This document shows, piece after piece, positions 9,180 to 36,754 of a stretch of DNA of 62,766 nucleotides. How positions within the stretch are numbered: position 1 is the stretch's first letter; every line of letters begins with the position of its first letter. A program made the translations under genes and the position numbers. The stretch spans positions 1-62,766 of the forward strand of contig JACPGT010000001.1 in assembly GCA_016188965.1 (NCBI GenBank), written 5' to 3'. The notes under the pieces were generated by a model. That model searched no databases, had not been told where the DNA came from, and saw nothing but the letters and a program-made list of their open reading frames with translations. The stretch comes from Microcaldota archaeon (lineage in GTDB: Archaea; Micrarchaeota; Micrarchaeia; Norongarragalinales; Norongarragalinaceae).

Positions 9180-9320
9180 GCCCAGGGGGGGAGGATCGCA
9201 ACGGTCGCCCCGGGGAACCCAGGTTCGCACAAGCCGCTTGGCGCCTTGTGGAACCCGCAAGTCCTTCGGACCTGCTACGGTTCCCCCTGGCCCGCCCTGG
9301 GCCTCGCCCCTCCAGGGACT
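9180..9320. repeat. partial tRNA-Thr 3' copy plus hairpin element A
   Basis: Bases 9180-9202 (GCCC then a G run and AGGATCGCAAC) are an imperfect copy of the tRNA-Thr 3' end at 9341-9360. The 118-base insert that follows (from 9203) is over 90 percent identical over about 108 bases to the insert before trpG (36056-36165). It folds into nested hairpins: an outer GGGGAACC with GGTTCCCC, a middle GGTTCGCACAAG with CTTGTGGAACC, and a small AAGTCC-TTC-GGACCT hairpin. Both copies keep the conserved unpaired strings CCCAGG and CCCGCAAG. Confidence 0.8.
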
Positions 9321-9339: not shown

Positions 9340-9411
9340 AGCCCCGGGGGAGGATCGAACTCCCGACTTCCTGTTTACAAAACAGGCGCTCTACCGCTGA
9401 GCTACCGAGGC
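9340..9411 (-). tRNA. tRNA-Thr (TGT)
   Basis: A 72-base cloverleaf on the minus strand. The acceptor GCCTCGG pairs with CCGGGGC (one G-U). A D-arm GCTCAGCGGTAGAGC, an anticodon stem CCTGT/ACAGG with loop TTTGTAA giving anticodon TGT, and a T-arm GGGAGTTCGATCCTCCC follow. The discriminator base is U, as in many archaeal tRNA-Thr. No intron. Both ends are flanked by partial copies of itself next to hairpin inserts. Confidence 0.93.
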
Positions 9412-9522
9412 ACGAAAGACGTTTGATGCGCAAGGACTATAGTGTTTTCTTTGGCGGTAGGCCGCCCCTTTCTTCTCCAAAAGAAAGGGGCGACCGCGTC
9501 TCTACCGCTGAGCTACTGGGGC
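9412..9522. repeat. hairpin insert plus partial tRNA-Thr 5' copy
   Basis: Bases 9500-9522 repeat the first 23 bases of tRNA-Thr with two mismatches. Between this copy and the real tRNA lies an 88-base insert with a perfect 12-bp stem, CGCCCCTTTCTT (9463-9474) against AAGAAAGGGGCG (9481-9492). CTATAG in the insert (9437-9442 region) is about 27 bases before the tRNA start on the minus strand, so the insert may now supply the tRNA promoter. The motif GGTAGG next to a hairpin and GACC also appears in the insert 3' of tRNA-Ser. Bases 9523-9725 hold no gene that I can see. Confidence 0.75.
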
Positions 9523-9725
9523 TTTTGAGCAAAACCATCGGTCTGGCAACGTGCGCGTTATCATCCGCTGGACTTGGTCGATGCCAAGTCTGCGCGTGCA
9601 GCCGCCCACGATGGCAAACTCCGCTACTTCTTTTTTTTTCTTTCTTTGAGCAGAGGGAAATACTTGTATCCTTGATGCTATTTATACGATTGAAAACAGC
9701 AGTTTCATGTAAAAGGTGAAACCCG

Positions 9726-33572: not shown

Positions 33573-33696
33573 GCCGGGGTGGCAGAATCCGGTAACGCGC
33601 TAGACTCGAGGCCATTTCTCTTTGTTAGTTTGGGAGAAAACCAGCGAGCCATCTAGTGGTCTTCGGACCTTCCGAGTTCAAATCTCGGCCCCGGCG
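33573..33696 (+). tRNA. tRNA-Ser (CGA) with intron
   Basis: Acceptor GCCGGGG pairs with CCCCGGC, discriminator G. The anticodon stem CTAGA (33600-33604) pairs with TCTAG (33652-33656). The loop C-T-CGA-G gives anticodon CGA. A 40-base intron (33611-33650) follows position 37. A long variable arm GGTCTTCGGACC and T-arm GAGTTCAAATCTC confirm a serine tRNA. The intron position is the canonical archaeal bulge-helix-bulge site. A TATA-like TTTAAAATC starts 37 bases upstream. Confidence 0.9.
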
Positions 33697-33798
33697 TATT
33701 CATCTTTCAATCCGCAAAAACAAGACTCGGGGGATCGGGGTAACGTAGGACTAAGGGGCGCTCCCCTTGGTCCCGGTTGCAAATCTCGGCCCCGGCGT
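33697..33798 (+). repeat. insert plus duplicated tRNA-Ser 3' end
   Basis: The 19 bases CAAATCTCGGCCCCGGCGT at 33780-33798 repeat 33679-33697 exactly; just upstream the copies differ (CCCGGTTG against CCGAGTT). Between them is about 82 bases with an AAGGGG-CGC-TCCCCTT hairpin and a GGTAACGTAGGAC string reminiscent of the insert 5' of tRNA-Thr. A T-rich run (TTTTTTCTTTT) after the second copy could be the tRNA terminator. Confidence 0.72.
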
Positions 33799-34580: not shown

Positions 34581-36008
34581 ATGAAACCGCCAAACGCAGG
34601 CACCTCCGCAAGCCACGCCGCAATTTCGGATAGCGGGTTCCTGGGCGCGCGTTCCGGCTTTTCCTCGCAACCGTTGGATCTTTTGGACCCGTTAAAGGCC
34701 TTCGAGCGGCTCTACACGGAGTGCGAGCATTGCTTCCTGTTGGAGTCGTTCGAACAGGACGGCACGCTGGGGCGCTATTCTTATCTGGGCTTCAACCCGG
34801 AGACGAGAGTCCTCATCAAGGACGGCATCATCCGCGTCGGGACGGAGGAACGCGAAGAAGACCCATTCTCGTTTCTCAAGTCATACACCAAGACGTCGGA
34901 CCGCAAGGGTTTCCGCGGCGGCCTCGTCGGATACCTGGCCCACGACGCAATCCAATACGTCGAGGACTTCAAACCCAAGCGCGGCACGTTTGCCGACATG
35001 GAGTTCGGACTCTACCTGGACGGAGTCGTCTTCGACCACCTACAGCACTCGGCACGCTACGTGACGGCCGGAAAAGACCGGATGGACGAATTGAAAAGCC
35101 TCCTGGTACAAACGGAGGCACCGGATGACGGGAACGACGAGATGGACGCCAAGCTCTTCGAACCGTTCGTCAAGCAGGATGCCTTTTCCGATTCCGTGCT
35201 CAAGGCGCAGGAGCGCATTGCCGCCGGCGACGCGTTCCAAGTCGTTCTGTCCCGCAAGTTTCCCGTCCGCATCAAAGGCAGCAAAATGCCGTTCTACCGC
35301 CAGCTTCGGCAGACCAACCCGTCCCCGTACCAGTATTTCCTGAAGATGGGCAAGCGGGAAATCATCGGCTCAAGCCCCGAGATGCTGGTGCGCGTGGAAA
35401 ACCAGACAGCAACCACGTTTCCCATCGCCGGGACGCGCCCCCGCGGCCGCAACCCGGCCCAAGATGCACAGCTAGAAGCAGAGTTGCGGGCCGATGCCAA
35501 GGAAAATGCGGAACACGCCATGCTGGTGGATCTAGCGCGCAACGACATCGGCCGCGTCTGTAAGCCCGGCACGGTCAAAGTCTCGGCGTATGGCCAGGTC
35601 AAGAAGTTTAGCCACGTGCAACACCTGGTTTCCGAAGTCTCCGGACAGCTGTTCGGCACCAGCACCGACGCGCTCAAATCCGTCTTCCCCGCCGGCACAT
35701 TATCCGGCGCGCCCAAACTATCGGCGCTCAAGATCATCGACCAACTCGAACCGCAACCCCGCGGCCCGTACGGCGGCGCCGTTGGCTTTCTGTCGCTGGA
35801 CGGATCGTGCGATTTTGCCATCAGCATCCGAACGCTCTTCTGCGACGGCGACACGGCGTTCGTTCAGGCCGGCGCCGGCATCGTGAAGGACTCCGACCCG
35901 AAGGCCGAATTCAAGGAAACAGAATACAAAGCACAAGCCCTCCTTGATTGCTTGAAACCGCAAATGGAAGAAAAGGGAAAAACAAAAAACCGCATTGGCA
36001 CGATGTGA
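34581..36008 (+). CDS. trpE: anthranilate synthase component I
   Basis: A 475-residue chorismate-binding enzyme. It makes anthranilate from chorismate with ammonia from TrpG. The N-terminal Trp-binding motif LLES (FLLESFEQDGTLGRYSYLG) and the C-terminal catalytic FPIAGTRPRGRNP and DLARNDIGRVCKPGTVKV blocks are present, so feedback inhibition is probably retained. It heads the trp operon with its own TATA box. The stop is five bases before the false trpG start at 36014. Confidence 0.96.
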   Translation: MKPPNAGTSASHAAISDSGFLGARSGFSSQPLDLLDPLKAFERLYTECEHCFLLESFEQDGTLGRYSYLGFNPETRVLIKDGIIRVGTEEREEDPFSFLKSYTKTSDRKGFRGGLVGYLAHDAIQYVEDFKPKRGTFADMEFGLYLDGVVFDHLQHSARYVTAGKDRMDELKSLLVQTEAPDDGNDEMDAKLFEPFVKQDAFSDSVLKAQERIAAGDAFQVVLSRKFPVRIKGSKMPFYRQLRQTNPSPYQYFLKMGKREIIGSSPEMLVRVENQTATTFPIAGTRPRGRNPAQDAQLEAELRADAKENAEHAMLVDLARNDIGRVCKPGTVKVSAYGQVKKFSHVQHLVSEVSGQLFGTSTDALKSVFPAGTLSGAPKLSALKIIDQLEPQPRGPYGGAVGFLSLDGSCDFAISIRTLFCDGDTAFVQAGAGIVKDSDPKAEFKETEYKAQALLDCLKPQMEEKGKTKNRIGTM

Positions 36009-36013
36009 AACTC

Positions 36014-36181
36014 ATGGCTCCGCGGATTTTGGTATTGGACAACTTCGACTCCTTGGTCGCCCCGGGGGAACCCAGGTTCGCACAAGCCGCTTGGCGCCTT
36101 GTGGAACCCGCAAGTCCTTCGGACCTGCTACGGTTCCCCCTGGCGCGCCCTGCGCCTCACCCCTTCCTGACGTGATTTGAC
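36014..36181 (+). repeat. duplicated trpG start plus hairpin element B
   Basis: Bases 36014-36052 encode MAPRILVLDNFDS, a near copy of the trpG start (36182-36220, MSPRILVLDNFDS). The 39-base copies have nine mismatches: five codons differ, four of them synonymously, and the last 20 bases before the final codon position are identical. Element B (about 36056-36165) is over 90 percent identical to element A at 9204. The false start opens a 54-codon frame through the element ending at 36175, seven bases before the real ATG. Without the insert trpE and trpG would be five bases apart. Confidence 0.82.
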
Positions 36182-36754
36182 ATGAGCCCAAGAATTCTCG
36201 TATTGGACAACTTCGACTCGTTCACCTACAACTTAGTCCAGCTGTTTCAAGTGGCCGGCGCGGAGTGCCTCGTCTTCCGCAACACCGCATCATACGAACA
36301 GGTACTGCGGACCAAACCGGATGCCATCATCATCTCGCCCGGACCCGGAACCGTGGAAAAACCCAAGGACTTCGGCGTATGCGCCCGCGTCATCCGCGAA
36401 CTGGACGTGCCCCTGCTGGGCGTCTGCCTGGGCCACCAAGGCATCGCCTACGCGTACGGCGCCAAAATCGTACGAACCACGCCGGTGCACGGAAAGACAA
36501 GCCAAGTCCTGCACGACGGCAAAGGCATTTTCCAAGGCGTCAAAAATCCGCTCCTCGCGGCGCGCTACCACTCCCTCGTCGTCGATCCGGCCACCGTGCC
36601 GGACGTCCTGGAAGTGACGGCCCGCACGCCGGACGGCCAAATCATGGCATTGCAACAAAAACAAAAGCCGCAGTACGGAGTCCAATTCCACCCCGAATCG
36701 TTCATCACCGAAGACGGCCGCAAAATGGCCGATAACTTCCTCAAGCTGGTCTAA
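36182..36754 (+). CDS. trpG: anthranilate synthase component II (glutamine amidotransferase)
   Basis: A 190-residue class I amidotransferase supplying ammonia to TrpE. The catalytic triad is complete: Cys in LLGVCLGHQGIAYA, and His and Glu in QFHPESFITEDG. The start at 36182 matches the family N-terminus (RILVLDNFDSFTYNL); the copy at 36014 is a decoy. The next gene begins immediately after the stop. Confidence 0.96.
   Translation: MSPRILVLDNFDSFTYNLVQLFQVAGAECLVFRNTASYEQVLRTKPDAIIISPGPGTVEKPKDFGVCARVIRELDVPLLGVCLGHQGIAYAYGAKIVRTTPVHGKTSQVLHDGKGIFQGVKNPLLAARYHSLVVDPATVPDVLEVTARTPDGQIMALQQKQKPQYGVQFHPESFITEDGRKMADNFLKLV

What the first reader, a model, noticed from the sequence alone, without database searches (positions are those of the whole stretch)
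36014..36220. trpG start is duplicated and recoded around element B
MAPRILVLDNFDS and MSPRILVLDNFDS are encoded by 39-base copies with nine mismatches, almost all synonymous (for example CGG/AGA and TTG/CTC), while 20 bases are identical. Plain drift of a decoy copy would not keep the peptide. This resembles elements that restore a disrupted gene with a recoded end, or recombination with a diverged relative.
Basis: partly seen in the sequence, partly recalled or inferred. Interest (0 to 1): 0.85.

Follow-up and report, generated by a model that had tools for sequence, protein, structure and literature searches.

The report
Tiny inserts that rebuild gene ends
The start of the trpG gene is doubled because a 113-base gene-free insert sits in it, and the same insert family occurs about 60 times in this small group of archaea, nearly always cutting off the end of a protein or tRNA gene and supplying a replacement end, which in protein genes is rewritten with different codons for the same protein, so that the gene stays intact.

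Summary
The window is archaeal (Micrarchaeota-type, DPANN). Between the two trpG starts lies a structured 113-bp "body" (36055-36167, GGTCGCC...CCCCTTCC). A covariance model finds 63 copies in 5 genomes of one family and none in the other ~300 genomes searched of the phylum. Of 61 copies examined, 50 are flanked by a duplicated gene end (about 2.4 expected from random positions). The targets are 5' or 3' ends of many unrelated protein genes, or tRNA 3' ends. A truncated copy abuts the body's left edge; the intact gene end follows the body. Over 33 coding cases the two copies differ almost only synonymously (pN/pS 0.10), so the truncated copy is not a decaying decoy. Bodies that are 98-100% identical sit at different genes whose two ends have already diverged, so the recoding predates insertion. 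Codon usage favours the truncated copy as native and the intact gene's end as the foreign, recoded one. Empty sites exist in relatives. The sister species' trpG carries its own, different insertion. Best explanation: non-autonomous miniature integrative elements that carry a replacement gene end, moved in trans by a recombinase (perhaps the zinc-ribbon tyrosine integrase). The enzyme and the way new targets are acquired are inferred, not shown.

The parts
36014..36054 (+). Truncated copy of the trpG start (probably the host's original start), 5 bases after the trpE stop codon; reads into the body
   Evidence: MAPRILVLDNFDS; host-like codons CCG, CGG and TTG; same trpE-stop/ATG context as in G002.
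36032..36051 (+). 20-bp identical core GTATTGGACAACTTCGACTC (left copy), the likely recombination core
   Evidence: permutation p 0.0095 for such a long identical run given 9 mismatches in 42.
36055..36167 (+). Element body ('element B'), 113 bp, GGTCGCCCCGGGGGAACC...GGTTCCCCCTGGCGCGCCCTGCGCCTCACCCCTTCC; no gene; covarying hairpins
   Evidence: Covariance-model match E 1.8e-11; hairpin pairs supported by compensatory changes; z-score -3.0 for folding.
36168..36181 (+). 14-base spacer TGACGTGATTTGAC between the body and the rebuilt start codon; looks like a diverged copy of the trpE-trpG junction
   Evidence: Sequence inspection; inference.
36182..36219 (+). Recoded trpG start supplied downstream of the body (MSPRILVLDNFDS); 36200-36219 is the identical core
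   Evidence: rare host codons CCA and AGA.
36182..36754 (+). trpG (anthranilate synthase glutamine amidotransferase subunit), intact, 190 aa
9179..9202 (+). Truncated copy of the tRNA-Thr 3' end (from the T-loop, with one extra base in the T-loop) abutting a second body
9203..9313 (+). Second body in the window, 94% identical to the trpG one, next to tRNA-Thr (9340-9411, minus strand)

Best explanation
The body plus a replacement gene end is a miniature, gene-free integrative element. Shown: a conserved structured body of about 53-160 bp is inserted precisely (its left edge GGTCGCC) 20-100 bp inside the ends of conserved genes and tRNAs; the original end is cut off on the left and a second end, encoding the same peptide with other codons, follows on the right, so the gene stays intact. 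Inferred: the element moves as a small circle or strand in which the replacement end abuts the body; recombination with the target in the stretch nearest the body splits the host gene, leaves the host's own end as the truncated copy, and joins the element-borne, recoded end to the rest of the gene. Because the element encodes nothing, the recombinase must act in trans; the best available candidate is the ~400-aa zinc-ribbon tyrosine integrase, a tyrosine integrase being present in all four element-rich genomes. How one body comes to carry so many different gene ends is not explained; capture of gene ends from related cells' DNA is the simplest guess.
For: 63 body copies in 5 of 60 relatives, none in the other 296 of 301 phylum genomes. 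50 of 61 copies have a flanking duplication scoring >=15, against 3.9% of random positions. Duplications mostly run to the base before GGTCGCC. 33 coding duplications: pS 0.49, pN 0.051, pN/pS 0.10, p about 1e-53 against neutrality. Identical or near-identical bodies at different genes with diverged ends: G008 C20/C116 100% (atpD ends 4/26 different), G001 C11/C10 98% (UPF0147 ends 18/77 different, 15 synonymous codons, 0 nonsynonymous). Mismatches are fewer near the body (77 against 147, p 0.0006). Truncated copies use more host-like codons (14 loci against 5, p 0.008). Empty sites: UPF0147 in G002, atpD in G000 and G002, trpG in G001. Independent insertion in G002 trpG with another body and a joint 36 bases further into the gene. 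Stacked insertions at one gene end: thiC-like in G008, three end copies. Integrases in all four genomes.
Against: No circular form, excision or donor element was seen. Tyrosine integrases also occur in relatives without bodies, no body lies inside a larger integrase-bearing element, and no recognition sequence is shared by the targets. At atpD of G001 it is the intact copy that matches relatives better. Some pairs (G008 C48) have no identical run longer than 11 bases, which is short for a homology-based step.
Confidence: 0.55

Rival explanations
1. The body is an ordinary transposon-like insert (MITE) that makes a long target duplication; the two copies then diverged by mutation.
For: Some duplications are exact (G000 C12 loci, G001 C9) or nearly so over ~80 bp (G002 trpG, G008 C13) and lie close to both body edges.
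Against: Divergence is almost purely synonymous although one copy is truncated. Bodies at different genes are identical while their gene ends are diverged. Duplications vary from ~20 to 100 bp. Protein-gene insertions nearly all leave the right-hand copy intact, while a simple target duplication predicts both orientations. No Y1 transposase in the element-rich genomes.
Confidence: 0.12
2. Ordinary homologous recombination with DNA of diverged relatives, at sites that already carried the body, replaced one of two once-identical ends.
For: The two copies differ as orthologues of different species do (trpG copies pS 0.74; G000/G002 trpG pS 0.60). Mosaic patterns at atpD and UPF0147.
Against: Requires a separate origin for the insertion and duplication, and an exchange tract stopping inside a ~60-170 bp stretch at dozens of loci. 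Does not explain the identical bodies or why the truncated copy is the host-like one.
Confidence: 0.22
3. The truncated copy plus body is a guide-scaffold RNA (as in IscB/CRISPR-like systems) that directs cutting of uninserted alleles, and the recoded end is a resistant copy.
For: Structured, covarying body with stable tetraloop-type hairpins next to a gene-matching segment.
Against: The stretch nearest the body is usually identical in the intact gene (20 bases in trpG), so a guide would hit its own chromosome. No effector was searched for or seen.
Confidence: 0.05
4. Assembly chimera of strains.
For: All genomes here are assemblies of unknown quality, mostly fragmented.
Against: The same body and anatomy occur at dozens of different genes in four separately assembled genomes.
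Confidence: 0.02

Closest known systems
Gene-restoring integrative elements: IMEVchUSA3 at dusA and SXT at prfC (PMC8409611)
   Same: Integrate in the 5' end of a conserved gene and supply a new, diverged N-terminal coding end (dusA: 61% identity over 35 residues).
   Different: Those elements are large, carry integrase and cargo, and use one target each. Here the insert has no genes and is 53-160 bp, with the same body at dozens of targets.
Tn5253 at rbgA (PMC8571831)
   Same: Variable duplication (17-84 nt) that restores the CDS, with the conserved core at the end of the att site; here too identity is highest next to the element.
   Different: One target gene; large conjugative element; the core is a fixed 11-bp sequence, none being shared here.
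Archaeal tyrosine integrase with homology-like activity, Int-pTN3 (PMC5495485)
   Same: A precedent for an archaeal integrase joining any pair of homologous segments, which would allow one enzyme to serve many targets.
   Different: Needs ~100 bp of identity in that work; no miniature elements described. The review of archaeal tyrosine recombinases (PMC8371274) contains none of the words miniature, non-autonomous or DPANN.
REP/BIME and MITE small elements
   Same: Short, gene-free, hairpin-forming, multicopy.
   Different: They are not known (from my own knowledge) to carry host gene ends; no Y1 transposase in the element-rich genomes.

Membership tests
Gene-restoring site-specific integrative element | Flanking duplication of one end of the target gene | tested here: met
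Gene-restoring site-specific integrative element | Element supplies a diverged but functional gene end | tested here: met
   By sequence only: same peptide, synonymous changes, pN/pS 0.10; function not assayed.
Gene-restoring site-specific integrative element | Encodes its own integrase | tested here: not met
   Body and spacer have no gene; no integrase-bearing element bounded by bodies was found.
Gene-restoring site-specific integrative element | One fixed core sequence / one target | tested here: not met
   Many unrelated targets, no common sequence at the joint.
Gene-restoring site-specific integrative element | Circular excised form and empty site | tested here: inconclusive
   Empty sites in related species; circles need reads.
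MITE | Terminal inverted repeats and short fixed target duplication | tested here: not met
   Ends GGTCGCC and CCCCTTCC are not inverted repeats; duplications range from ~20 to 100 bp.
REP/RAYT | Y1 transposase in the genome | tested here: not met
   PF01797: no match in G000, G001, G002 or G008; assemblies are 71-90% complete.
Integron cassette (attC) | Folded site with conserved GTT-type core and an IntI integrase | tested here: inconclusive
   Covarying hairpins are present but the left edge is GGTCGCC with no GTT core; IntI not searched specifically.
Known RNA family | Match to Rfam | tested here: not met
   No match at gathering score in the window apart from tRNAs; best weak match over 36000-36230 has E 0.06.

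The most novel reading that the evidence does not exclude
A new kind of mobile element, little more than a ~55-base structured core, whose target choice is set only by a captured stretch of host gene next to it, so that one recombination system can insert it harmlessly into almost any conserved gene end, each time with a recoded end that keeps the gene working.
Probability: 0.35. Interest if true: 0.93.

Novelty: new variant of a known kind. Interest (0 to 1): 0.85.

Why it matters
Gene-restoring integration is known from large phages and conjugative elements with one dedicated target each. Here a gene-free insert of 53-160 bp does the same at dozens of genes in tiny archaeal genomes. If target choice is set by a captured gene segment, this would be a naturally programmable, non-destructive insertion system. 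It also gives a large natural set of recoded gene ends that makes the origin of such ends testable, and it warns that start and stop positions annotated in these genomes may fall on truncated copies.

Tried and rejected
Neutral decay of a decoy copy: rejected by pN/pS 0.10. Post-insertion drift: rejected where bodies are identical but ends diverged. Autonomous parent element bounded by bodies around the integrases: not found. Y1 transposase as mover: none in the element-rich genomes. Body in IMG/VR viral contigs: one exact pattern, no match; a second pattern was malformed. Rfam: nothing. Deciding native or foreign ends by comparison with relatives gave mixed results, codon usage a modest signal. 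RNA-guided self-targeting was considered and set aside because the segment next to the body also matches the intact gene. Literature searches for miniature gene-end elements, Micrarchaeota mobile elements and DPANN integrated elements gave no description of this; two further searches were malformed. A first ORF-frame assignment was wrong for some loci and was replaced by curated frames; a first integrase comparison missed reverse-strand genes and is used only loosely.

Full report
OBSERVATION. The window lies in a 1.37-Mb genome (G000) of a Micrarchaeota-type archaeon. A genome of the same order (G025) has a trpG contig of 6,546 bases, the length of a public contig titled Candidatus Micrarchaeota archaeon (L011), so this placement is indirect. 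The trp operon runs trpE (ends 36008), trpG (36182-36754) and so on. Bases 36014-36052 repeat the trpG start 168 bases upstream with nine mismatches: four synonymous codons and one Ala/Ser change. The last 20 bases of the first 38 are identical. The upstream copy sits 5 bases behind the trpE stop and reads into the insert.

THE INSERT IS A FAMILY. A search with the locus found copies next to tRNA-Thr in the same window (9203-9313) and next to a tRNA-Tyr on contig 1, plus shorter relatives. Aligning 27 copies gives the consensus NNGGTCGCCCCGGGGGAA...TTCCCCCTGGCNCG(C/G)CCTGNGCCTCGCCCCCTTCC, with optional long hairpins in the middle. The two hairpins have compensatory changes: covariation score 0.286 against 0.121 in shuffles, 31 double-change cells against 10. 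This indicates that the sequence acts as a folded single strand, DNA or RNA. A covariance model finds 63 matches: 23 in G000, 13 and 7 in two same-genus genomes, 19 in G008 of another genus, one in G006. Apart from these five, none of 301 genomes of the phylum has a match. The longer scan used stricter filters, so weak copies elsewhere may be missed.

ANATOMY. Of 61 copies examined, 50 have a left flank that reappears to the right of the body with score >=15, 26 with >=24; random positions give 3.9% and 1.1%. The left copy usually ends on the base before GGTCGCC. About 17 copies are at tRNA genes. There the truncated copy starts in the T-arm and often carries one extra base in the T-loop (for example TTCG[g]AAC). 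The rest are mostly at ends of protein genes: trpG (G000 and, at another position with another body, G002), thiI, atpD (5' end in G001 and G008, 3' end in G000), UPF0147-type gene (G000, G001), trxB-like, metK-like, ppsA-like, lpd-like, thiC-like, Lrp-like, Hsp20-like and class-III-signal-peptide genes. Apart from ThiI (Pfam) and trpG these names are my reading of the translated ends, not database-confirmed. In protein genes the intact copy is nearly always on the right. Relatives show uninserted ends: UPF0147 in G002, where the gene end is followed by the same tRNA; atpD in G000 and G002; trpG in G001. In G008 one gene end (thiC-like) carries two insertions in series with three versions of the end.

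THE RECODING. Over 33 coding duplications there are 145 synonymous differences on 295 sites (pS 0.49) and 56 nonsynonymous on 1,092 (pN 0.051): pN/pS 0.10, p about 1e-53 against neutral proportions. The loci are not all independent and the alignments were chosen by similarity, so the p value is indicative; the ratio is the point. A truncated copy decaying after insertion cannot give this. Nor did the divergence build up after insertion: G008 atpD and an acyltransferase-like gene carry identical bodies (58 positions), yet the atpD ends differ at 4 of 26; G001 atpD and UPF0147 carry bodies 98% identical, yet the UPF0147 ends differ at 18 of 77 with 15 synonymous and no nonsynonymous codons. So the ends were different when, or before, the body arrived. 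This assumes that bodies are not kept identical by exchange among themselves; on average bodies are no more alike within a genome (0.59) than between genomes (0.60), which speaks against general exchange. For scale, trpG of G000 and G002 have pS 0.60 outside the duplication, and the two trpG starts of G000 0.74.

WHICH COPY IS NATIVE. Truncated copies carry codons more typical of the host: mean log ratio 0.33 +/- 0.13 over 95 synonymous codons, 14 loci against 5, p 0.008. In trpG the truncated copy has CCG and CGG, the intact one CCA and AGA, which are rare here. Comparison with relatives is mixed: trxB of G002 and UPF0147 of G000 (against G008) favour the truncated copy as native, atpD of G001 the intact one. 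Mismatches are fewer in the half nearest the body (77 against 147, p 0.0006), as expected if strand exchange happens there; trxB shows it best, 68 identical bases then 10 changes in 32. Overall the host's own end appears to be the truncated copy, and the working gene has been given the recoded one.

MECHANISM. Known gene-restoring elements behave the same way on a larger scale: IMEVchUSA3 gives dusA a new N-terminus, as SXT does for prfC (PMC8409611), and Tn5253 duplicates 17-84 bases of rbgA with the fixed core at the end of the att site (PMC8571831). What differs is size (no gene at all) and breadth (dozens of targets with one body and no common target sequence). A recombinase must act in trans. 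All four element-rich genomes carry a tyrosine integrase; the main G000 one has a zinc ribbon. Such integrases also occur in relatives without bodies, and none lies in an element bounded by bodies, so this is only the best candidate. An archaeal integrase that recombines any homologous pair is on record (Int-pTN3, about 100 bp; PMC5495485), a precedent for targeting by homology. No Y1 transposase occurs in these four genomes. How one body acquires ends of different genes remains open; uptake of gene ends from related cells is my guess.

VERDICT. The finding is real, much larger than reported, and I found no description of it in the papers searched. The anatomy and the recoding are shown; mobility, enzyme and retargeting are inferred.

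Noticed in passing
window 33697-33798: After the intron-containing tRNA-Leu-like gene (33573-33696) lies a different small element ('element A', GGGGTAACGTAGGACTAAGGGGCGCTCCCCTTGGTCCCGGTT) followed by a truncated copy of the tRNA 3' end with an extra base in the T-loop. The same element stands in series with element B at a tRNA on contig 1 and at other tRNAs.
   Followed up: partly
L091 (G000:C11) 671-880: One body lies inside what looks like the intron of a tRNA gene (ARAGORN calls tRNA-Phe; the anticodon region is interrupted).
   Followed up: no
tRNA-associated copies, e.g. window 9196-9202, L166, L183: Truncated tRNA 3' copies often carry one extra base in the T-loop, perhaps to stop them acting as tRNA processing signals.
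   Followed up: partly
L278 (G008:C27): The UPF0147 gene end is followed by a decayed second copy of the end with a few body-like bases between: possibly a scar of a lost insertion.
   Followed up: no
body alignment A1: The right-hand CCCCCTTCC tract follows the left GGGGGAA tract in parallel complement order (GGAGGAA/CCTCCTT), which would fit an alternative pairing or a triple helix.
   Followed up: no
window 9455-9525: Upstream of tRNA-Thr is a fragment resembling the 5' part of a tRNA (TCTCTACCGCTGAGCTACTGGGGC, complement) behind an inverted repeat.
   Followed up: no
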